Shown: positions 4,600 through 29,002 of the stretch, piece by piece
Layout: the number at the start of each line of letters is the position of its first letter
Numbering within the stretch: the first letter of the stretch is position 1
Source: a virus
Virus record (IMG/VR): IMGVR_UViG_3300036780_000399
Span: 1-30,479 of that record
DNA: 30,479 nt
Reading direction: 5' to 3' (one strand)
Notes under the pieces: model-generated
Seen by the model: the letters and a program-made list of their open reading frames with translations, nothing else
Databases searched by the model: none
Told to the model about the DNA's origin: nothing
Position numbers and translations under genes: made by a program

Positions 4600-4670
4600 G
4601 GGACCCCATGGGGTTGGCGGACCGTCCGAGGCGTGGCAGGCTTCGCGGCGCGGGGATTGGGGCAGGCAGA

Positions 4671-5636
4671 GTGTCGACAACGACGGCGGTATTGGGTCTA
4701 CACACGACGAGTGGTGGAACGACGCGTTACGTGTCCCTCGATGGTTTGCGAGGCATTGCCGCCTTAGCCATCATGTTTCTACACACGTCTGAATTCACGC
4801 TCGGCAGGACGCTCACGAGCGCAGGCCGAGCCGTCGACTTCTTTTTTCTCTTATCCGGATTTGTACTGTCTGCAGCATATGTCGCCCCGGGCGCGCGATA
4901 CGTTCGGGCGCGGGTAATACGTCTTTATCCGATGGTGCTTTTCGGCGTCGCGCTTGGCGCATCGCTGATGCTGAGCACGGGTCTCGCTGGACCTTGGCGC
5001 ACGGCGCTAGCCTTAAACCTTATCGGGCTCCCATTTCCTGGCATAAGCTATGCCTTCGACGTTCCGCTTTGGTCAATTGCGATTGAGGCTGAACTCAGCG
5101 TCGTGTTTATTCTGCTCGCGCGGATGAGGATTCCTTACCTCGTTATCGTGCTTGGTTGCGCCGCCGTCGCCGCAAGCCTTCTTCAGACGCCGAACCCTCC
5201 AGAAGAGTTTGCACGGGGATTGCTTCCGTTCGTCACCGGCATTTTGGTTCACCGCTTGGTCAAAAAGTCGAGTGGATCAAAGAGCCTGCCGATCGCGGCA
5301 ATGCTCCTCCTGGTATGTCTGCTTTGCATCCCAGAGATTCAGAAGGTGTCGGTCTTGCGCACGGCGGCGTTCACCGTGGTGCTGCTTGCAGGAATTTCCG
5401 ATCCGCCCTCATTCGCTCGGCCAGCGTGTGACTACCTCGGGCGCCTATCTTATCCGCTTTACGCAATCCACTGGCCTCTCGGTTGGTGGGCGGCGCGGCA
5501 TGGCATTGTCGGCCCTTGGGGCTTCGTCGCGACCTGTGCCGCAGCCGTCTGCCTGGCTCACGTCGCGATGGTCCTATACGATGAACCGGTCCGAAGCGCG
5601 CTTTCCGTCCGATTTGCACGGTTGAAACCAGCCTAA
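4671..5636 (+). CDS. Acyltransferase 3 family membrane protein (OafA-like)
   Basis: This 321-aa integral membrane protein belongs to acyltransferase family 3, whose members O-acylate lipopolysaccharide or other surface glycans. Near the N-terminus it has SLDGLRGIAALAIMFLH, the family signature with its His, followed by VDFFFLLSGFVLS and RLYP. The C-terminal part has several membrane helices and SYPLYAIHWPLGWW. GTG at 4671 was chosen because it sits just before the family start; an ATG at 4608 in the same frame is possible. The gene is on the strand opposite to the phage late genes and visibly lower in GC (36 of 60 bases in 4921-4980). Its TAA shares bases with the TAG of the convergent receptor-binding gene. 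It is probably a lysogenic-conversion gene. Confidence 0.88.
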   Translation: MSTTTAVLGLHTTSGGTTRYVSLDGLRGIAALAIMFLHTSEFTLGRTLTSAGRAVDFFFLLSGFVLSAAYVAPGARYVRARVIRLYPMVLFGVALGASLMLSTGLAGPWRTALALNLIGLPFPGISYAFDVPLWSIAIEAELSVVFILLARMRIPYLVIVLGCAAVAASLLQTPNPPEEFARGLLPFVTGILVHRLVKKSSGSKSLPIAAMLLLVCLLCIPEIQKVSVLRTAAFTVVLLAGISDPPSFARPACDYLGRLSYPLYAIHWPLGWWAARHGIVGPWGFVATCAAAVCLAHVAMVLYDEPVRSALSVRFARLKPA

Positions 5637-6645: not shown

Positions 6646-7122
6646 TCAGAGGGTGGTCGGTTCGCCGCGCAGGAACAGCAGGCTCGTCGCGCTCAGCGCT
6701 TTGCCGACGAACTGCACGATGTCGCCGCTGTGTTCGGCCGCCGGCGCCATAGCGGTCACGCCGCCCGTCGTTCCCAGCCAGTAACCCGCGCCCGGCGTCA
6801 GCCCGCCGAGCGCGGTGTTGATCGCGCCTGGGCCGTAGATCAGCGGCACGCCGCCCGCGGCGCAGCCCTTCAGGACGAACACATCGACAGCTTTGGCCGG
6901 GTCGGTATTGTCCGCGTTCCTCAGTTCACACACGCCCGCGTTTGACCAGATGCTGGCGAACGCCCCGTCAGCCAGGGTCTCGCTCGCCGCCATCCGCGCG
7001 GCCACCGGCGTCGCCGCAACCCCGTCCGGAACGCGCGCCAGGGCCGTCGCGATCTGCTGGCGGAACTGTTGCTCGTTCGACCGGTCGTACCTCGCCGGCG
7101 CGTTGATCGGTTGCAGGGTCAT
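6646..7122 (-). CDS. Tail-associated fibre-adaptor-like protein
   Basis: This 158-aa protein has a charged N-terminal helix, then a beta-rich domain. Its pattern (FVLKGCAAGG...LGGLTPGAGYWLGTTGGVT...GDIVQFVGKALSATSLLF, about residues 80-150) is common in phage tail and fibre proteins. The ATG at 7122 overlaps the stop of the nozzle-like gene by 4 bp. The receptor-binding gene starts 11 bp after its stop. It probably links or decorates the tail tip. No enzymatic motif is visible. Confidence 0.65.
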   Translation of the reverse strand: MTLQPINAPARYDRSNEQQFRQQIATALARVPDGVAATPVAARMAASETLADGAFASIWSNAGVCELRNADNTDPAKAVDVFVLKGCAAGGVPLIYGPGAINTALGGLTPGAGYWLGTTGGVTAMAPAAEHSGDIVQFVGKALSATSLLFLRGEPTTL

Positions 7123-8624
7123 CGCCGGCTCACCGGCAGGGCGTCGAGGCGGAAGATCCCCGCGCGCGCGTCGTCCATGCCGGTGAAGGCGACCTCCATT
7201 TCGAGTTGACGCGCCGAGAACACCACGTCGGTCGGGTCCGCGCTGACCGCGAAGGGGCCGAACGCCGTCTCGGCGGTGTTGGGAAACTCCCGCGCATAGA
7301 AGGTGACCGTCGCATCGCCCAGGCTCTTCTCGTCGGCGACAAAGCCCTTGACCACCACGCGCTGGTCGCCCTGCGCCATGCCGCCCTGCGACGGCCACTC
7401 CACCGGGCCCGACCGCACGAACGGCGTCAGGGTCTCGCCGCCCGACGGATAGCTGAAGCCGACCTCATGCTCCCAGATCGCGCCTGAGGGATCGACCATG
7501 ATCGGGTTCTGGAAGATGCCGTTCCCCTCGCCGCAGGTGCGCGCCAGCGCCCCCACCCACCAGTGGTTCAGCCGATAGTTCCACAGCACATAGCGGTCAT
7601 CCTCCAACGACCCCGCCGAGGGATAGAACCACCACACCTCGCCGTGCTTGGTGTTGTGATAGGCGCAGACCTTCGAGCCCTGCGTCTCGTCGAAGTCGGC
7701 GAACACCTTGTCGGCGACCTCGCACGGCAAAGGATTGACCGTCCCGTCGTAGAGAAAGAAGCTCTTGCGCCCCATCCACACACAGCGACTGTCGATCGCC
7801 ACCGGCGCCCCTGTCGACACCGCGCCGCAATCGGCGCCCGCCAGCTGAAAGCCGTGCACGAACGGCGGCCCCAGATAGGTCGAGGACCACACGTCGACCT
7901 CGGTGAAATGCAGCTGCACCCCGCCCCTCAGCTTGCGGCCGAAGCGGAAGGTGCCTTCCGTGTCGATGTCCTGATCGCCGGCCTGGTTGGTGGCCGAGGC
8001 GGTCCACACCGTCTCCGCCTCCTGGTCGCACCAGGCGATGTTGCGGCCGCGATAGACGAAGATGAACCGCTCCTGGCTCACCGAACAGCCTGAGACGCCC
8101 GTCGGCGCGCCCGACACGACCTGCGCCGGCGTCGGCGTCGCCGCGTCCAGCTTCCACAGATACAGCTTGCCGTCCTCGGCCATGGCCCCCAGCAACCACT
8201 CGCCCCACACGTCCAACGTCCACACCGACGCCGGCTGAATGTCCTCGGTATCCGGGCGTCCCGTACCGAATGCTCCCACGCCGTACGGCCCCTCGCCGAA
8301 CCCGCCCTCGCCCGACGCGTCTGGACGCCCGGCGGTGAAGCCCGCGGGCGTGATGTCGACCAGCGCGCCGGTCACCGTCTGCACGTACAGCTTCTCGTGC
8401 GTGCCGATGGCGACCCAGCGTTCGTTGGCGTTGTCCTTCCAGGTGACGATCGCGCGCGCCAGCCCGCTCACCGCCGCCGTCCCCCGCTGACTCCAGCCGC
8501 CCACCGGCTGCAGGTCCGACCCATTGGGCGAACGCACCAGGTTGGAATCCCGCCACCGCCCCCGCGCCTGCCGCGCCGTCCCATTGGCGAACACGCCGGG
8601 CGGAAACTCGAGATCGACGTACAT
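7119..8624 (-). CDS. Tail nozzle / P22 gp10-like DNA stabilisation protein candidate
   Basis: This 501-aa protein starts with a motif (LEFPPGVFANGTARQARGRW) often seen at the start of prophage 'packaged DNA stabilisation' or tail-hub proteins. It continues with repeated Trp/Gly beta-strand patterns (WVAIGTHEKLYV, GKLYLWKL, RFIFVYRGRNIAW, GEVWWFYP, LWNYRLNHWWVGAL) suggesting a beta-propeller, as in P22 gp10 or podovirus nozzle proteins. ATG at 8624 was chosen over the open frame reaching 8855, because that upstream part is encoded by an intergenic repeat. It is the first gene of the tail-tip block 8624-5633. The name rests on pattern and position, not on a search. Confidence 0.7.
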   Translation of the reverse strand: MYVDLEFPPGVFANGTARQARGRWRDSNLVRSPNGSDLQPVGGWSQRGTAAVSGLARAIVTWKDNANERWVAIGTHEKLYVQTVTGALVDITPAGFTAGRPDASGEGGFGEGPYGVGAFGTGRPDTEDIQPASVWTLDVWGEWLLGAMAEDGKLYLWKLDAATPTPAQVVSGAPTGVSGCSVSQERFIFVYRGRNIAWCDQEAETVWTASATNQAGDQDIDTEGTFRFGRKLRGGVQLHFTEVDVWSSTYLGPPFVHGFQLAGADCGAVSTGAPVAIDSRCVWMGRKSFFLYDGTVNPLPCEVADKVFADFDETQGSKVCAYHNTKHGEVWWFYPSAGSLEDDRYVLWNYRLNHWWVGALARTCGEGNGIFQNPIMVDPSGAIWEHEVGFSYPSGGETLTPFVRSGPVEWPSQGGMAQGDQRVVVKGFVADEKSLGDATVTFYAREFPNTAETAFGPFAVSADPTDVVFSARQLEMEVAFTGMDDARAGIFRLDALPVSRR

Positions 8625-8655
8625 GAAACAACTCCAAAACCACGAGCGCGAGCGT

Positions 8656-8770
8656 GTCCCCCCGTCCTCGAGACGGGGGGACCGGACTGCGCTCTTCGCG
8701 CAGGCCAGGAGGGCAAGTGTTGCAGCCCACAACGGTCGGTGATGAGTGAAAGGGTGCGTGAACGCGACGC
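8656..8770 (+). repeat. Dispersed palindromic repeat, copy 1
   Basis: This copy has a strong hairpin (C-rich and G-rich arms around CCTCGAG, 8658-8680), then ACCGGACTGCGC, a short variable loop and GCGCAGGCCAGGAGGGCA. It continues with GTGATGAG...GCGTGAACGCGACG. The first 60 bases or so are nearly identical to the inverted copy at 12716-12776, and the whole unit is shared with 12544-12659. It lies in the 5' leader of the nozzle gene. Confidence 0.8.
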
Positions 8771-8938
8771 TCAGTTCGTCCCGCTTCGAAGACGAGCGCA
8801 CATCATCGCGATGATCGATTTCCTGAGACATGACGCGCATCGCCCGCGCACGCAAGCGCCCGAAAAGTCCGCAACCGCGAACCGCCTCGTGATCGTATTT
8901 CTTCGCGCGGTTTTGCGACGAGCGCCCGCGCCTTCCGC

Positions 8939-8966
8939 TTGCGGCCCGCGCGTATTCCGCTATGCT
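8939..8966 (+). promoter_or_regulatory. Sigma70-like promoter of the 570-aa lipoprotein gene
   Basis: A TTGCGG (8939-8944) and a TATGCT (8961-8966) are separated by 16 bp, leaving a leader of about 60 bases before the ATG at 9032. The gene therefore seems to have its own promoter, independent of the leftward late transcript, as expected for a cargo gene expressed in the lysogen. Confidence 0.5.
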
Positions 8967-9031
8967 ACCTGTAGAAGTATTCCAGCGTACATGCCGCTAC
9001 TGGTTCAGAGCCTTTTCGGGGGGATCTGCTC

Positions 9032-10744
9032 ATGACCGCACGTCGCCGACTGCTTCCGCTCGCCCTGCTCCCACTCCTCGCCGCCTGCCAGGGCCACCTG
9101 CCGCCGCTGGAGACGCAGCCGCACATCACGGCGCCTGTCGAGCCGCGCCAGAGAGATGCCGATCTGGTTATCAATCGCGTTGAATGTGAGCTCTATGACA
9201 TTATCCATCCATCCGTGACTGCCGCAGCGGAGGCGCATGAGAACGCGCTAGCCGCGGGGCACGGTGAAGGCGAGGTCGGCTACCTGCTAAACGAAGACGA
9301 ACGGTTGGCTAGGCTGAGGAGAGAAAAACTTCTCGACCGTCTTGTCAGTGACCACTTCGTCGTAACCGTTCAACTCAACCTCGATGTCTCAGACACCGAA
9401 GGCTTCACTCCGTCGTTCGCGATCACGAGGCCGTTGCCCGGGAAGAGCAGCCCGAACCGTGTCACAAGCCTTGGCGCATCGATTACCAGCACGCAAGAAC
9501 GCGCCGGAAACGTCAACTATTCGGTAGACCTTGCTTCTCTAAACAAGAATCCTCCCGCATGTGCGCCGGCGGACGGGGTTGGTGGCGTTGCAGGAAAACT
9601 TGGCCTCGTAGACATAGTTTATGATGGCCTGACCTCACTTCAGAAGGCATCGAAGAATAACATCTACAGCGCCGGAACAGGCCCAGTCGTGCCTCCGCTG
9701 GTTAAGCAGGTTCAGTTTGAAGAGAGGGTCACCATCCCCGCGGCCACAGCGTCTGGGTCACCGCTATACCGGATGGGCCTCCTTACTGGCGTGCTCACGC
9801 TCGGCCCGGGCGCAACTGGAGGGCCGGCCCCGGGCAGTGCAGCGTTCATCGGCGACTTGGTGCTCGACAAGAAATGTCCCGACGACACCTTCACAAACTG
9901 TAGTGATTTAACTCCTGAACGGTACGTTGCCGCGAGCTTGTCGGGCCCCTACTTCGCCTCAACGTCCGTCAGCGACCCGAGCAAGTTCACGCTTTCAGGA
10001 AGCATGACGTTCGATGACCAGGAAAACGCCGATGCAAAAGCTGACCTAGGGTACAGCGCGACCGTGACCTTCAACGGGATTCGGAAAGCTGGCGAACTTG
10101 CGCCCGCTTCCTCCGCCAGACGTAGAATCGTAAACACCGTCTCACTAAACGGATTCTCGCCGCAGGGATCAGGCGGAACGTCGGCCGCGACGTTTCGTGC
10201 GTGTGGCGCATATACAACGCCCGCAGTCGACATTCACGGAGCTATAGGCGTAGACAATCCACCGGCGCAGGCTTGCACGCCAAGCAACGGCGCCATGCCC
10301 AGAACGCTGGCGCAACCAGAATCTGTGAAGCCGCTGGAGAGTAATACGTCTTACACTCAAATCCAGGCGTTCACCGGGAGTACCAAACCGAGTGGGACTG
10401 GTTCCCCGGGCGGCGGAGGGGGCTCGGCTGCATCTTTCGGGACAGTCGTTACCTTCACACTGGCATACAGCGGTAATGCCAACCTTGTCGCAACACTGGC
10501 GCATTTCAAAGGCCCCGGCGGAGCAGCTTCTCTTGGGAGCGCGGGACGAACTAATACAGACCAGATGACAATAAGCTTTACCCCCGCTTGTCAGGATCAC
10601 CCCAACGACACCGTCGAAGATTATTGGGACACGATCCCGTTGTGCTTCGATCTGCCAGGCCAAACCGCTGACGCCATAACGGCAAACTTCAACGCCATCA
10701 TAAGCAGAGCACTCGTGGCGGGATTTGTGAAACAACAGCAATGA
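9032..10744 (+). CDS. Large cargo lipoprotein of unknown function
   Basis: This 570-aa protein has an N-terminal lipoprotein signal (basic MTARRR, hydrophobic core, LLAAC with Cys19). The mature protein is rich in Ser, Thr, Gly and Asn, with only one Trp visible near the end. It has Cys-containing segments that may form disulphides, and a Gly/Ser/Pro linker near residues 452-465. This suggests a multidomain beta-rich surface or periplasmic protein. A GGGGGGAT precedes the ATG. It lies opposite in strand to its tail-gene neighbours, has its own promoter, and is clearly AT-richer (27 G/C of 60 in 9601-9660). No family was recognised. Superinfection exclusion or surface alteration is possible but unproven. 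Confidence 0.75.
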   Translation: MTARRRLLPLALLPLLAACQGHLPPLETQPHITAPVEPRQRDADLVINRVECELYDIIHPSVTAAAEAHENALAAGHGEGEVGYLLNEDERLARLRREKLLDRLVSDHFVVTVQLNLDVSDTEGFTPSFAITRPLPGKSSPNRVTSLGASITSTQERAGNVNYSVDLASLNKNPPACAPADGVGGVAGKLGLVDIVYDGLTSLQKASKNNIYSAGTGPVVPPLVKQVQFEERVTIPAATASGSPLYRMGLLTGVLTLGPGATGGPAPGSAAFIGDLVLDKKCPDDTFTNCSDLTPERYVAASLSGPYFASTSVSDPSKFTLSGSMTFDDQENADAKADLGYSATVTFNGIRKAGELAPASSARRRIVNTVSLNGFSPQGSGGTSAATFRACGAYTTPAVDIHGAIGVDNPPAQACTPSNGAMPRTLAQPESVKPLESNTSYTQIQAFTGSTKPSGTGSPGGGGGSAASFGTVVTFTLAYSGNANLVATLAHFKGPGGAASLGSAGRTNTDQMTISFTPACQDHPNDTVEDYWDTIPLCFDLPGQTADAITANFNAIISRALVAGFVKQQQ

Positions 10745-10762
10745 ACCTCAGAGTGCCGCTTC

Positions 10763-12511
10763 CTACTGCGCCACCACGATCACGCTGAACCCCGTCGGAT
10801 CATGCGCCCCGCCGCCGTTGGCGCACTCGATGGCGGCTTGGCTGGTCGAGCGGGTAAACGTCGAATCCTCGGCGCACTGTTCCTGCACCGTCCCCTGGGC
10901 CAGCACCACGAACGCATAGTTCGCGTCGGGAAAGGTCGAGGCGAAGGTGATGGTGTAGCTCCCCGTCCCCGTGCGGGACACGCCGGCGATGTTGTTGCTT
11001 GCGACCAGGGTGGGGACGCTGCCCGAGACGGTCACATATCCCGACGCCGCCACCGGAAAACCTGACCACGCCGCATCTGTGCCGCCGCTGTTCACGGTCA
11101 GCACCTGCCCCGCCGCCGACCCCATCGCCGGCAGGATGACGCCCCGCGCGGCGCCGGCGCTCAGATCGCTCGGCGGCCCCGACCCGGCCGCCGAGCGGCC
11201 CTTGATCGTCCCCGACGCGACATTGGCGAGGTCTGCGTTGCTCACCGCACCGGCCTGGATCGTCGCCGTGCCGCTCACATTGGCCGAGCCGTTGAAGCTC
11301 GCCGACGTCCACGCCACGTCGCCGCTCATCGCGATGGTGTGTCCGCTCGCGAGCGTCGCGGCCGATCCCGTCGTGTTACCGCTCAGCGCGGAGTCCGTGA
11401 ACGCCAACGTCTTGGTCGCGCCGCCGCTGGTCTGATACTTCAGCGCGTCCGCGTTGTTCCACACGTCCCCCGATCCCGGCGAGGTCGGATCCGCCGTCCC
11501 CTTCGCCAGGTTCAGCGGCGCCAGCGTGCTCGACGTAACGCCAAACGTCAGCTTCACCCCGCTCAACGTCTGTGCGCCCGACCAGGTGTTGGCGCCGTTC
11601 AACAGCGGCGCCGCCGCCCCCGACGTCCCGGTGTTCACCACCGCCGCCGTGCCCAGCCCCAGGTTCGTGCGCGATGTCGCGACATTGGCCACGTCCGACA
11701 AATTGTTGGTCGAGATCAACCCCGTCCCCGACGCCGATCCCATGGTGATGTTCGCTCCGCCGATGCGGCAGGCGAACAACGTCGAGGTGATCCAGCAGTC
11801 GCCGTTCGACGGCGAGGTCGGCGCGCTGCCCGGCGCGATGTTCAGGCTGGCCGCCCCCGACGCCGAGGCTGGAAACCCGACCCTGCCGGTAAAGCTGTCG
11901 CCGGCCCGGTTCGCCGGCGTGAACCCGAGCTGTCCCGTCACCGCGCCCGCCGCCAGCATCGAGGCGCTGACCGTCCCGCCCGGTATCGTCGCGTTCAGCG
12001 TGACGTCGGAGGACCCGTCGAAACTGATCGACCCGGACAGATTGGCGCCGAGCGTCAACGTGCGCGCCGTCGTCCACCTCGCCGCCGAACCCGTGGTGTT
12101 GGCCGAAATGTTCGTGCCGTCGACGAACGCCAGCGTACGCCGCAAAGGCCCGCTCGTCTGGGTGACGTACACGTTCGTCCCGTCCCATTCCACCGCCCCC
12201 GCCGCAGGCGACGTCAGCAGCGCCCCCGCCTGCAGCTTCAACGGCGCCAGCGTCGTCGTCCCCGCCGCCAGCACCGGCGTTCCCGTGAACGTGCATCCCG
12301 CAACGCCGCTCGACCGCGCCCCGCCGGCCAGATCGCACTTGCCGTAGAGCAGGCTGTCGAGCGTATCGAGATCGCCGTTGATCTGCGTCCCCCAGGTATC
12401 CGCGTCGGCGGACACCGTCGGCTTCGACAGCGCATAGTTAGCCGTCGGCGTGCCGGCAAACGCCGCCGGCGCAAGCGCCGTCAGCGCGACCGAAAGCAAA
12501 AGCCTGCGCAT
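10763..12511 (-). CDS. Tail fibre protein with N-terminal Sec-type signal
   Basis: This 582-aa protein starts with a convincing Sec signal peptide (MRRLLLSVALTALAPAAFAG). A fibre-type N-terminal domain follows (NYALSKPTVSADADTWGTQI...LDSLLY, about residues 25-56). It then has three related modules of the type APLxL...TSPxxGDxW...TLAF...NTTGSAA (about 87-145, 222-257 and 329-385). The C-terminus (about 490-582, GVSRTGTGSYTITF...YAFVVLA) resembles fibre C-terminal domains. ATG at 12511 was chosen because GGAG is nine bases upstream; an ATG at 12520 and a TTG at 12526 are in frame but poorly spaced. It is probably an adsorption fibre. A cleavable export signal is unusual for a virion protein. 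Confidence 0.78.
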   Translation of the reverse strand: MRRLLLSVALTALAPAAFAGTPTANYALSKPTVSADADTWGTQINGDLDTLDSLLYGKCDLAGGARSSGVAGCTFTGTPVLAAGTTTLAPLKLQAGALLTSPAAGAVEWDGTNVYVTQTSGPLRRTLAFVDGTNISANTTGSAARWTTARTLTLGANLSGSISFDGSSDVTLNATIPGGTVSASMLAAGAVTGQLGFTPANRAGDSFTGRVGFPASASGAASLNIAPGSAPTSPSNGDCWITSTLFACRIGGANITMGSASGTGLISTNNLSDVANVATSRTNLGLGTAAVVNTGTSGAAAPLLNGANTWSGAQTLSGVKLTFGVTSSTLAPLNLAKGTADPTSPGSGDVWNNADALKYQTSGGATKTLAFTDSALSGNTTGSAATLASGHTIAMSGDVAWTSASFNGSANVSGTATIQAGAVSNADLANVASGTIKGRSAAGSGPPSDLSAGAARGVILPAMGSAAGQVLTVNSGGTDAAWSGFPVAASGYVTVSGSVPTLVASNNIAGVSRTGTGSYTITFASTFPDANYAFVVLAQGTVQEQCAEDSTFTRSTSQAAIECANGGGAHDPTGFSVIVVAQ

Positions 12512-12543
12512 CGATATCATCTCCAAAAAAATTAAAGAAACGC

Positions 12544-12659
12544 CTGTCCTCCCGCAGAGCGGGAGGACCGGACTGCGCTCTTGGGCGCAGGCCAGGAGGG
12601 CAAGTGTTTGCAGCCCGCGACGGTGCGTGATGAGGGAAGGGGGGCGTGAACGCGACGCG
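12544..12659 (+). repeat. Dispersed palindromic repeat, copy 2 (left arm of an inverted pair)
   Basis: The copy opens with a hairpin of CTCCCGC and GCGGGAG. It continues with ACCGGACTGCGC...GCGCAGGCCAGGAGGGCA and GTGATGAG...GCGTGAACGCGACGC, as in the copy at 8656-8770. It lies immediately upstream of the fibre gene, on the 5' side. With the inverted copy at 12716-12776 it forms a head-to-head pair separated by about 56 bp. Confidence 0.8.
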
Positions 12660-12715
12660 TCGTTCAGGCGCCATACCCTGAGACAATCACCTTCCCGCGT
12701 CGCACTCCCGATGAC

Positions 12716-12776
12716 GTGCCCTCCTGGCCTGCGCTATGCGCAGTCCGGTCCCCCCGTCTCGAGGACGGGGGGACAT
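12716..12776 (-). repeat. Dispersed palindromic repeat, copy 3 (inverted arm)
   Basis: Read on the minus strand, this copy is nearly identical to the first 60 bases of the copy at 8656-8770. The differences are mainly in the 4-base loop between GCGC arms. It lies just downstream of the small gene ending at 12795, so it may also act as a transcription terminator or RNA stabiliser. Confidence 0.8.
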
Positions 12777-12794
12777 GCGCTTTCACGCGCTCGC

Positions 12795-21630: not shown

Positions 21631-21786
21631 CACCCTCCCCTTCAAGGGGAGGGTCGCCTCGCGAAGCGAGTGGGGTGGGGTAACAAGCGCCGCCTTCGAA
21701 AACTGCAGGCGGCGCAAAGCGCTCCGTACGTCGCGCCTGGCCCCCCACCCGGCGCTGCGCGCCACCCTCCCCCTTTGGGTGAGGGT
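21631..21786. repeat. Head-to-head pair of dispersed repeats
   Basis: The left arm (21631-21680) has CACCCTCCCCTTC, AAGGGGAGGGTCGCC, then CGCGAAGCGAG and TGGGGTGGGGTAAC. The right arm (21738-21786) is a diverged inverted version (CCCCCCACCC...CACCCTCCCCCTTTGGGTGAGGGT). It fills the gap between the portal gene and a plus-strand gene. A close copy of the left arm occurs at 24839-24890. The right arm could also form a terminator hairpin. Confidence 0.75.
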
Positions 21787-22862: not shown

Positions 22863-22983
22863 TCAGCAGCCCTTATCTGTGGACAGCGCCGGGCCCAGCT
22901 TCGACGCCACCGCCTTGGCCGGCACGCCCTTGCCGCTCGCTTGTGCGATGTCCGGCTTAGCGGCCGTCTTCGCCGCCTCGCCG
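22863..22983 (-). pseudogene. Truncated copy of the 70-aa gene at 24605-24817
   Basis: On the minus strand this reads GEAAKTAAKPDIAQASGKGV, then PAKAVASKLGPALSTDKGC and a TGA. The intact 70-aa protein ends GEAAKTTAKADMAQASGKGV, PARAVVSKLAPGVSAEQGL. About ten of 86 compared bases differ, and the frame is intact. Its upstream end meets the stop codon of the TPR gene at 22984 exactly, so its N-terminal half is missing. Confidence 0.85.
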
Positions 22984-24522
22984 TTACGGCGTCACGCGAA
23001 ACCGCGCCATATCGCGAGCGACGTCAGGGTCTGCCGCCAAGGCGGCGTCGATATCGACGCGGCCTTCTGTTTCGCGACCGGCGCGCAGTTTACACACCCC
23101 GAGCCCATAGCGGACGCTTGCCGTATCCGGATCGAGCGCGACCGCCTGTTCGTAGTCTTTGATCGCTTCAGCGAGCGCGCCCTGGTGCAACCGGATCAAA
23201 CCCCGGGTCGCGTACGCCATGCCCTCGCACGCCGGCCGGTCGAACAGCCGAGTACAATCGGCCAGCGCTCCATCGAAATGGCCGGCCATTACACGCGCAC
23301 CGGCACGGTTGGCCTCGTGGCTCGCCTCGTCCGGCTCCAATGCCGCAGCACGATCGAAATCCCCGACCGCCGCCGGGTAGTCGCTGCGATCGAGGTGAAT
23401 GTAACCGCGCAAAAATAGGCTCCCCACGTCATCCGGCCGTGCGCTAAGCGCAGCGTTAACGTCTTCCAAGGCGGCGTCGCCAGCTTTCAAACGCCAGAGC
23501 GCGAAAGCACGGCCGTAAAGCACGTCCGGATCCCCAGGCATGAACTCCAGCGCATCCGTGAAGTCAGCAGCTGCATGCGCGTCTTCCCCCAGTGCGAGCC
23601 GCGCGCGACCCCGGTGAAAGATCGCCCTAAATCTCATGTCGTCCGGAGAAGCGGGCGCCGCGAGGGCGTCGAAATCCTCGATCGCAGGCGCCGGCCTGTC
23701 CGAATCCGCGTAGGCGAGGCCACGCTCGAAGCGAGCCCACGTGCTATCCGGCGCCAACTTCAACGCCTTGTCGAAGTCTGCGATGGCCCTGTCGTGGCAG
23801 TTGAGTTTACGGTGCACTCTCCCTCTCGCAGCCCAGCCGTAAGACTTTCGCGGCGCCAAACGGATCAAACGGCTGAAATCGGTCAGGGCGCCGTCGCAGT
23901 CCCCATTGGCGAAACGCGTCTGGCCGCGATTGTACGAGAGGCTCGCAAGGCGCGGAGTCCAGAATGCCCAAGGGAGCGACGCCAGCCGAAGGGCACGGTC
24001 ATAGCTCTTTAGGGCGGCGTCGTAGTCACCCATCCCGTGCAGGGCCGAACCTCGTCCGGAATGACTGCCGATCCGGCGGGGCCACCGTGCAATAAGCGCA
24101 TCGAAATCCTCCAGCGCGCGGTCGTAATGCTCCAAATTCATATGGGACCAAGCGCGCCAAAAGCGCGCGTTAGGATGTTCGATGCCGCCGTCCACCGCCT
24201 TGTCAAACGCTGCGATCGCGCGGCCATAGTCGCCCCGGTTCATCGCGAGGACGGCGGAGTCGTGCCAGCGGATATAATGTAGAATCCTCGGCGCTCGCAA
24301 AAGCACGGCCCCGGCCGCGCCAATCAACACGAGCCGAAAAACAACGCCCGCCGTGACCGCCCAACCAAAGCCCGGCGCCAGTCGCTGGCCGGCGGCCAAG
24401 CGAAAGATGAGCGGGACATCCGACCCGATCGCCCAGATGATCACAAAAATCGCACCGGCCACGAGCCAGCGCAGCCCCCACATCCTCCGCAACGCCGCCC
24501 CCCTCTGCTCTGATCCGCACAC
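22984..24522 (-). CDS. Membrane-anchored TPR-repeat protein
   Basis: This 512-aa protein has two N-terminal transmembrane segments (about residues 17-42 and 53-76). About ten tetratricopeptide repeats follow (for example YGRAIAAFDKAVDGG, YDRALEDFDALIARWP, YDAALKSYDRALRLA, HDRAIADFDKALKLAPD, YPAAVGDFDRAAALEPD). TPR domains bind proteins, so this is probably an inner-membrane scaffold or effector. GTG at 24522 with AAGG upstream was chosen; ATG at 24483 is an alternative. It lies between a full and a truncated copy of the same small gene, so it appears inserted. It is not a usual virion gene; no further function can be given. Confidence 0.82.
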   Translation of the reverse strand: MCGSEQRGAALRRMWGLRWLVAGAIFVIIWAIGSDVPLIFRLAAGQRLAPGFGWAVTAGVVFRLVLIGAAGAVLLRAPRILHYIRWHDSAVLAMNRGDYGRAIAAFDKAVDGGIEHPNARFWRAWSHMNLEHYDRALEDFDALIARWPRRIGSHSGRGSALHGMGDYDAALKSYDRALRLASLPWAFWTPRLASLSYNRGQTRFANGDCDGALTDFSRLIRLAPRKSYGWAARGRVHRKLNCHDRAIADFDKALKLAPDSTWARFERGLAYADSDRPAPAIEDFDALAAPASPDDMRFRAIFHRGRARLALGEDAHAAADFTDALEFMPGDPDVLYGRAFALWRLKAGDAALEDVNAALSARPDDVGSLFLRGYIHLDRSDYPAAVGDFDRAAALEPDEASHEANRAGARVMAGHFDGALADCTRLFDRPACEGMAYATRGLIRLHQGALAEAIKDYEQAVALDPDTASVRYGLGVCKLRAGRETEGRVDIDAALAADPDVARDMARFRVTP

Positions 24523-24604: not shown

Positions 24605-24817
24605 TTAAAGACCTTGCTCGGCGCTCACCCCCGGGGCCAGCTTCGAAACCACCGCCCTGGCCGGCACGCCCTTCCCGCTCGCCTGTGCCATGTCCGCCTT
24701 GGCGGTCGTCTTCGCCGCCTCACCCTTCAAAGCAGCGCCGATGAAAGCGTTAGGCTTCTGCGCGTGCTGTTTCGCAACGGCGGCGTAGTGTTTGTCGTTG
24801 GCCATGGTGGTGGTCAC
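24605..24817 (-). CDS. Small phage protein upstream of the TPR gene
   Basis: This 70-aa protein is basic and Ala/Lys-rich (MANDKHYAAVAKQHAQKPNAFIGAALKGEAAKTTAKADMAQASGKGVPARAV). It has no membrane segment and may bind nucleic acid or another protein. GTG at 24817 is preferred because AGGAGAGA is well spaced upstream; ATG at 24805 is also possible. A truncated paralogue lies at 22863-22983 beyond the TPR gene. It is downstream of the large terminase gene. The function is unknown. Confidence 0.65.
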   Translation of the reverse strand: MTTTMANDKHYAAVAKQHAQKPNAFIGAALKGEAAKTTAKADMAQASGKGVPARAVVSKLAPGVSAEQGL

Positions 24818-24838: not shown

Positions 24839-24890
24839 CACCCTCCCCTTGAAGGGGAGGGTCGCCTCGCGAAGCGAGCGGGTGGGGTAA
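24839..24890 (+). repeat. Dispersed GC-rich palindrome (second copy)
   Basis: This is a close copy of 21631-21680, with CACCCTCCCCTTG, AAGGGGAGGGTCGCC, CGCGAAGCGAG and GGGTGGGGTAAC. It lies in the 5' leader of the 70-aa gene, as a single arm rather than a pair. Confidence 0.8.
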
Positions 24891-24906
24891 CGAGGGGCGT
24901 GCATCG

Positions 24907-28384: not shown

Positions 28385-29002
28385 ATGTGCATGAAAAGCG
28401 CAAAAGCGCCTCCACCCCACAAGCTCCGGGCCTGGCGCAAGCACCGCAACCTGACCCTGGAGGGCTTGGCCGAGCGCATCGGCATGTCGCACCAGAACCT
28501 GGGCCGCATCGAACGCGGCCTGGTCCCGCTGCAGGACGAATGGGTCATCGCCATCGCCCGCGCGCTGGAGGTCGAACCCGCCGACCTTTTCCGCGAACCC
28601 GGCGCCGGCCCGCACGCCGGCGGCCCGAAGACCGTGCCGCTGGTCGGCTACGTGGGCGCCGGCGCCCAGGCCCACTTCTATGCTTCCACTGATGTTCTGG
28701 ACGATGTGCCCGCCCCCGAAGGCGCCACCGAACACACCCGCGCGGCCCAGATCCGCGGCGACAGCCTGGGCCCCCTGCTCGACGCGTGGCTGATTTACTA
28801 TGACGACGTACGCACCCCGGTGACCCCCGACCTGATCGGTCGCCTCTGCATCGTCGGCCTCCCCGACGACAAGGTGCTGGTGAAGAAACTGGAGCGCAGC
28901 CGCAGCCCCGGCCTCTTCCACCTCATCTCCAACAACGAAGCCCCCATCCTCGACCAGACGGTCCAGTGGGCGGCCCTGGTGAAGCAGATGTCCCCGCGCT
29001 GA
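28385..29002 (+). CDS. CI-like repressor with LexA/S24 domain
   Basis: This 205-aa protein has an HTH_3 domain (residues 13-60, LRAWRKHRNLTLEGLAERIGM SHQNLGRIERG) and a C-terminal LexA-like peptidase fold. The latter has RGDSL with Ser127 and VLVKKLE with Lys167 or 168 as the likely dyad. A possible cleavage region is VGYVGAGA (87-94). It would repress lytic genes and be inactivated by RecA-stimulated autocleavage, if the domain is active. ATG at 28385 was used; another ATG at 28391 follows. It lies divergent to the GcrA-like gene with operators O1 and O2 between them. Confidence 0.88.
   Translation: MCMKSAKAPPPHKLRAWRKHRNLTLEGLAERIGMSHQNLGRIERGLVPLQDEWVIAIARALEVEPADLFREPGAGPHAGGPKTVPLVGYVGAGAQAHFYASTDVLDDVPAPEGATEHTRAAQIRGDSLGPLLDAWLIYYDDVRTPVTPDLIGRLCIVGLPDDKVLVKKLERSRSPGLFHLISNNEAPILDQTVQWAALVKQMSPR

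What the first reader, a model, noticed from the sequence alone, without database searches (positions are those of the whole stretch)
9032..10744. 570-aa cargo lipoprotein of unknown function with its own promoter
The gene is opposite in strand to the tail operon, AT-richer than its neighbours, and preceded by a good sigma70-like promoter and ribosome binding site. The product has a clear lipobox. A large lipoprotein expressed from a prophage could alter the envelope or block phage entry. No known family was recognised, so it is a real candidate for a new function.
Basis: partly seen in the sequence, partly recalled or inferred. Interest (0 to 1): 0.55.

Follow-up and report, generated by a model that had tools for sequence, protein, structure and literature searches.

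The report
Phage cargo lipoprotein, unnamed family
A bacterial virus carries a foreign-looking gene for a lipid-anchored envelope protein that belongs to a real but still unnamed family of bacterial lipoproteins, in a spot where a related virus carries other genes; what the protein does is not known.

Summary
The 570-aa ORF at 9032-10744 (+) is real, with a clean lipobox, lower GC3 (0.63) than six structural genes (0.88-0.92), and opposite orientation. The claimed promoter was not found by a scan. Pfam, NCBIfam, PHROGs, PADLOC and PDB sequences gave no credible match, yet it is no orphan: it belongs to an unnamed lipoprotein family found in 18 of 397 genomes of one bacterial order, on Bradyrhizobium plasmids and in three other IMG/VR records. 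A profile built without it scores it 81 bits; the best of 200 shuffles scored 0.6. It keeps the lipid-anchor Cys and two further conserved Cys, and carries an extra segment of about 247 aa between the two core parts. Close chromosomal copies show dN/dS of about 0.08. In a sister phage the flanking genes lie 2 nt apart, so about 2.1 kb is an insertion relative to it; another sister has different genes at that junction. 'Cargo lipoprotein' is supported; 'no family' holds only for the libraries. Best guess at role: envelope protein of the lysogen, perhaps excluding other phages; unproven. A sub-threshold Trypco2 match in relatives is a weak lead. Structure prediction failed.

The parts
9032..10744 (+). 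570-aa lipoprotein gene
   Evidence: family membership
9032..9088 (+). signal peptide and lipobox LLAAC, lipid-anchor Cys19
   Evidence: by eye; the lipobox Cys is an invariant column of the relatives
9185..9187 (+). conserved Cys52 (RVECEL motif)
   Evidence: invariant column in A3; aligned
9560..9562 (+). conserved Cys177, possible disulfide partner of Cys52 (disulfide inferred)
   Evidence: nearly invariant column in A3; aligned
9665..10405 (+). extra segment, residues about 212-458, between the two conserved core parts; edges approximate
   Evidence: unaligned in both profile alignments
10406..10600 (+). conserved C-terminal core (residues 459-523) with GRTNTDQMTISFTP
8627..10763 (.). about 2.1-kb segment absent from sister phage L002
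   Evidence: window 8626 aligns to L002 6924 and window 10764 to L002 6922
8643..8770 (.). palindromic intergenic repeat beside the gene
   Evidence: 8674-8770 matches 12560-12658 (88.9%) and 8643-8718 matches 12793-12714 inverted (86.6%)
12538..12793 (.). second copy of the palindromic repeat, beyond the tail-fibre gene
8939..8966 (+). weak promoter-like pair TTGCGG-16-TATGCT (7 of 12)
   Evidence: by eye; not reported by the scan
9018..9024 (+). G-rich ribosome-binding-like stretch, 7 bases before ATG
   Evidence: by eye
7122..8624 (-). left neighbour: stabilisation-type virion protein
   Evidence: PHROG 3287, E 6.5e-54 (scanned as 7119-8855); some phage relatives are annotated 'phage stabilization protein'
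10763..12526 (-). right neighbour: tail-fibre-like protein
   Evidence: PHROG tail-fibre matches
4608..5636 (+). second opposite-strand cargo gene: acyltransferase (Acyl_transf_3)
   Evidence: GC3 0.635

Best explanation
It is a cargo (moron-type) gene that this phage picked up. Shown: by sequence it is a divergent member of an unnamed lipoprotein family found mainly in one alphaproteobacterial order (Hyphomicrobiales, inferred from record titles), on Bradyrhizobium plasmids and in a few virus records; relative to a sister phage it is inserted between the fibre gene and the stabilisation-type gene. Predicted from sequence: the product is exported, lipidated on Cys19 and held at the envelope, with a Cys52-Cys177 disulfide. 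Inferred: the segment of about 247 aa that this member has and most others lack contacts a partner; the protein is made in the lysogen and changes what the envelope lets in or binds, most likely hindering other phages. Odds: family membership 0.95, cargo status 0.9, phage exclusion or receptor masking as the job 0.3.
For: Membership: a profile of 19 relatives, built without it, gives 81.1 bits over residues 5-538, best of 200 shuffles 0.6; a 22-sequence profile gives 70.8 bits over residues 1-523. Cargo: GC3 and codon usage; empty site in L002; Rce1-like and DUF1036 genes at that junction in L003. Mobility: plasmid members, three other IMG/VR records, gene GC below flank GC in 20 of 21 loci, three of the 20 by 0.005 or less. 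A working gene: dN/dS 0.074-0.086 in six pairs of four close chromosomal copies. Envelope theme: acyltransferase genes here and in L002, an FkbM-type methyltransferase gene in L003. Precedent: Ltp of phage TP-J34, a prophage-made lipoprotein reported to block DNA injection (PMC3952083, passages).
Against: No member has a known function that I found, and nothing here shows expression, surface exposure or phage exclusion. No PADLOC match. Close chromosomal copies are stable and conserved, which fits a general envelope role as well. No neighbour is shared across the family: only three pairs of loci share neighbours within 5 kb (L069-L070, L095-L109, L098-L106). No promoter found. L003's Rce1-like gene has GC3 0.90, like phage genes, so it does not look foreign. 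Three phage genes of the window also have lowered GC3. Structure predictions unusable.
Confidence: 0.4

Rival explanations
1. A general host-fitness lipoprotein (envelope stress, polysaccharide or nutrient binding) carried as a benefit to the lysogen, with no role against phages.
For: Close chromosomal copies under strong purifying selection, in one neighbourhood with ordinary-looking genes (gene names by eye).
Against: Patchy (18 of 397 genomes), gene GC below flanks in 20 of 21 loci, present on plasmids and virus records: more an accessory gene than a core one.
Confidence: 0.35
2. Outward-facing piece of a conflict system: two tandem Trypco2-like modules on a lipid anchor that sense or hold a partner.
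For: Trypco2 matches 2 of 19 relatives in Pfam, best E 0.0055, in L085 over residues 33-95. N and C halves of the family resemble each other over 27 columns: P 5.7e-4, score 25.2 against at most 15.8 in 100 shuffles. Trypco2 is described beside trypsin-like peptidases of conflict systems (PMC7159879, passages) and called an adapter domain (PMC10907252, passages).
Against: 17.4 bits against a cut-off of 24.2; another family, DUF2749, hits one relative almost as well (E 0.0075). No match in the window protein or in L111, L120, L121. A Trypco2 search rang in 0 of 14 genomes, 11 of which hold family members. The half-to-half similarity has a probability of only 29% and fell to 14% (P 0.002, score 20.9 against at most 16.2 in 200 shuffles) with 22 sequences. 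No trypsin-like partner seen.
Confidence: 0.1
3. A phage structural or lysis lipoprotein (for example a spanin-like part) that only looks foreign.
For: It lies inside the structural region.
Against: Opposite strand, foreign-looking codon usage, site empty in L002, relatives on chromosomes and plasmids.
Confidence: 0.05

Closest known systems
Unnamed chromosomal and plasmid lipoproteins (e.g. L060:832-1758; Bradyrhizobium plasmid gene IVB17_RS41665, annotated 'hypothetical protein')
   Same: Lipobox Cys, CEL-type Cys, central Cys, LxLxV strand, C-terminal RTxTHxLxITxGP-type motif
   Different: 16 of the 19 aligned relatives are 274-345 aa, three are 388-478 aa; the window protein has about 34 extra aa early and about 247 between the core parts. 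Identity 30-33% over residues 466-557 to the four closest found first
Ltp of Streptococcus thermophilus phage TP-J34 (PMC3952083, passages)
   Same: Prophage-encoded lipoprotein; the proposed job
   Different: Gram-positive host; serine-rich spacer and repeat domain; gene in the lysogeny module; no direct sequence comparison made here
Llp of phage T5 (PMC9586334, search listing only; details recalled)
   Same: Phage-made lipoprotein in superinfection exclusion
   Different: Much smaller (recalled); no direct sequence comparison made here
Trypco2 domain, PF19631 (PMC7159879, passages)
   Same: Weak profile match in two relatives
   Different: Below cut-off; no match in the window protein; no trypsin-like partner seen

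Membership tests
Unnamed lipoprotein family (alignment A3) | Whole-length profile match well above chance | tested here: met
   81.1 bits against at most 0.6 for 200 shuffles
Unnamed lipoprotein family (alignment A3) | Lipobox Cys plus two further conserved Cys | tested here: met
   Cys19, Cys52, Cys177
Unnamed lipoprotein family (alignment A3) | C-terminal RTxTHxLxITxGP-type motif | tested here: met
   GRTNTDQMTISFTP aligned, with His replaced by Asp and the Gly of GP by Thr
Unnamed lipoprotein family (alignment A3) | Same fold | tested here: inconclusive
   AlphaFold2 mean pLDDT 41.1 (relative L111, 3 sequences) and 32.6 (this protein alone)
Phage cargo (moron) gene | Inserted between phage genes, absent in a relative | tested here: met
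   Empty site in L002
Phage cargo (moron) gene | Base composition unlike the phage's structural genes | tested here: met
   GC3 0.628 against 0.88-0.92 for six structural genes; three other minus-strand genes 0.71-0.83
Phage cargo (moron) gene | Own promoter and terminator, expressed in the lysogen | tested here: inconclusive
   0 promoter sites; 2 terminator-like sites against a shuffle mean of 2.7; expression not testable
Superinfection-exclusion lipoprotein (Ltp or Llp type) | Blocks infection by other phages | not testable with these tools
   Needs plating and adsorption tests
Superinfection-exclusion lipoprotein (Ltp or Llp type) | Match to a library model of a known defence or phage protein | tested here: not met
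   No match in PADLOC, PHROGs, Pfam or NCBIfam; no direct comparison with Ltp or Llp was made
Trypco2 (PF19631) | Pfam score above 24.2 bits | tested here: not met
   No match in the window protein; best relative 17.4 bits
Trypco2 (PF19631) | Trypsin-like peptidase gene next door | tested here: not met
   The neighbours at 7122-8624 and 10763-12526 match phage structural families

The most novel reading that the evidence does not exclude
A phage- and plasmid-borne class of envelope-anchored conflict proteins built from two tandem Trypco2-like modules, with an exchangeable insert that sets what is recognised; the window member carries a new insert of about 247 aa.
Probability: 0.1. Interest if true: 0.7.

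Novelty: new member of a known kind. Interest (0 to 1): 0.4.

Why it matters
Phage-carried lipoproteins are a known way to change a lysogen's envelope, but this family has no model in the libraries searched, although close chromosomal copies are under strong selection and several virus records have taken a member up. Defining the family and its variable insert gives a target for exclusion tests in alphaproteobacteria. The junction between the fibre and stabilisation-type genes looks like a cargo spot worth mining in this phage group.

Tried and rejected
Direct searches with the protein found no relative: viral contigs and genome contigs, which look for exact 8-residue stretches and so reach close relatives only, and tblastn in phages and plasmids. 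A search of 385 genomes gave 10 weak matches; nine of the ten loci were looked at (L048 was not), and the family profile found none of the ten among ORFs of 70 aa or more. Of 11 matches four were members; the other seven were likewise not found by the profile. One weak match in a Variovorax genome (E 0.09) was rejected the same way. Two DNA motif scans (9 loci, 6 loci) brought no member (L117 at E 0.038 was rejected after reading). One search of 6 further genomes gave 0 matches. The alignments misplaced the middle of the protein; only the profile alignments are used for the insert. A further copy of the core unit inside the insert was sought and not found (N half 0.8 bits, C half none). The family profile found 0 of 369 genomes in the class of a Variovorax genome (its positive control is G294) and 2 of 385 in the class of a Caulobacterales genome: G294, already, and G337, weak at 62 bits. 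Of the 18 genomes, 17 members were aligned; the copy L072, 98% identical to one used, was left out. No fold search was run on the poor models.

Full report
What was checked. The ORF at 9032-10744 (+) is 570 codons long. It begins with a short signal peptide ending in the lipobox LLAAC. Its GC is 0.588 and GC3 0.628, while six structural genes have GC3 0.88-0.92; its codon adaptation to the structural genes is 0.26 against 0.61-0.73 for those six, five of which form the reference. Three other minus-strand genes of the window lie between (GC3 0.71-0.83, adaptation 0.32-0.51), so low values alone do not prove foreign origin. The second opposite-strand gene, an Acyl_transf_3 protein at 4608-5636, has the same signature (GC3 0.635, adaptation 0.24). 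The promoter claim was not confirmed: 0 sites in 8500-11000.

Where it sits. The left neighbour matches PHROG 3287 (virion structural protein) and the right neighbour matches tail-fibre PHROGs. Relatives of the left neighbour (12 loci) and of the major capsid protein (5 loci) came from viral contigs, and 20 capsid relatives from genome contigs; by my reading of the titles 15 of those 20 are alpha-, beta- or gammaproteobacterial. In the closest sister, L002 (67% identity for the stabilisation-type protein), blastn aligns window 10764 to L002 6922 and window 8626 to L002 6924, and the fibre stop and the next start are 2 nt apart. So about 2.1 kb holding the lipoprotein gene is an insertion relative to L002. 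In L003 this junction holds other genes, among them an Rce1-like and a DUF1036 protein; the first has GC3 0.90, the second 0.51. L003 also has an FkbM methyltransferase gene and L002 an acyltransferase gene, both opposite to the structural genes and with GC3 0.69 and 0.66. A palindromic repeat lies at 8643-8770 beside the gene and again at 12538-12793 beyond the fibre gene; repeat-aided exchange is possible but not shown.

Which family. Pfam, NCBIfam, PHROGs and PADLOC gave nothing, PDB one match at E 0.93. Direct searches of four collections gave no relative. A search of 397 genomes from the order of a Methylocystaceae record gave 11 matches, of which four were members: 308-aa lipoproteins matched within residues 466-557. 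One of them as query found members in 18 of the 397 and in six Bradyrhizobium plasmids (two at E 6e-9, four at 7e-3), but in none of 50,697 phage records. Nineteen relatives were aligned: 17 from the genomes, three of them near-identical, and two from plasmids. The profile built from them without the window protein gives 81.1 bits over residues 5-538; the best of 200 shuffles gives 0.6. A 22-sequence version gives 70.8 bits. Both leave residues about 212-458 unaligned. Two relatives, L075 and L076, have other inserts in about the same place, and L087 has one earlier, by eye. The protein has nine Cys, the lipid-anchor Cys and eight more.

How it spreads. Three further IMG/VR records carry members: L111 (the same record as L119), L120 and L121. 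Their genes have GC 0.529, 0.438 and 0.508 against flanks of 0.622, 0.660 and 0.617. Over all 21 loci compared, 20 have gene GC below the flanks, three of them by 0.005 or less, and L101 is above. In L111 the neighbours read like phage genes by eye; L120 and L121 were not examined closely enough to say so, and such records can include bacterial DNA. Four close chromosomal copies have dN/dS 0.074-0.086 over six pairs, so in that group the gene is maintained; this says nothing directly about the window copy. The family profile found 0 of 369 genomes of another class and 2 of 385 of the class of a Caulobacterales record.

What it may do. Nothing in the data shows the function. Anchor, export and surroundings favour an envelope role; exclusion of other phages is a natural benefit for a phage and has precedents such as Ltp (PMC3952083, passages) and Llp (PMC9586334, search listing). 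The rival is a general fitness lipoprotein. A more unusual lead is Trypco2: 2 of 19 relatives match below the cut-off, best E 0.0055, that one being L085 over residues 33-95; by elimination the other is L071, L073 or L074, and the sequence of L071 gave nothing at E 1 or better. One other family, DUF2749, matched a relative at E 0.0075 in the same scan, so such scores may be chance. The two halves of the family resemble each other weakly. Trypco2 comes from conflict systems with trypsin-like peptidases (PMC7159879 and PMC10907252, passages). The window protein does not match it, and no real Trypco2 sequence over the cut-off could be fetched for comparison.

Limits. Structure prediction failed. 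Literature searches were by words and cannot show that the family is absent from print. Verdict: an ordinary kind of thing, phage cargo, with an uncharacterised and well-supported family behind it.

Noticed in passing
window 4608-5636 (+): Second foreign-looking opposite-strand gene, an Acyl_transf_3 acyltransferase, perhaps an O-antigen or polysaccharide acetylase (PHROG O-acetyltransferase); L002 has a gene of the same Pfam family beyond its stabilisation-type gene.
   Followed up: partly
window 8643-8770, 12538-12793, 21631-21687, 24839-24894; L002 3364-3529, 3886-4053, 5037-5202: Palindromic intergenic repeats of more than one type, one type shared with sister phage L002; they look like repeats usual on bacterial chromosomes (recalled).
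   Followed up: partly
window 22884-22985 and 24626-24727: A 102-nt direct repeat (86% identity) flanking a 1.7-kb stretch with an ORF matching PHROG 7590, function unknown.
   Followed up: no
window 28385-29002 (+): ORF that reads like a small helix-turn-helix repressor on the strand opposite to most structural genes; a hint of lysogeny, not tested by profile.
   Followed up: no
L069 4740-5594 and L070 4415-5473: On two Bradyrhizobium plasmids the family gene follows a homologous ORF (52% identity); the L070 copy has HEVGH, a motif typical of metallopeptidases (recalled); no Pfam match at E 0.01 for the L069 copy.
   Followed up: partly
L002 1302-2507: META-domain protein with a signal-like start, just after the capsid gene of the sister phage.
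   Followed up: no
L095 and L109: Two distant family members lie near the same two or more neighbours (54% and 71% identity), which read like folC and accD by eye.
   Followed up: no
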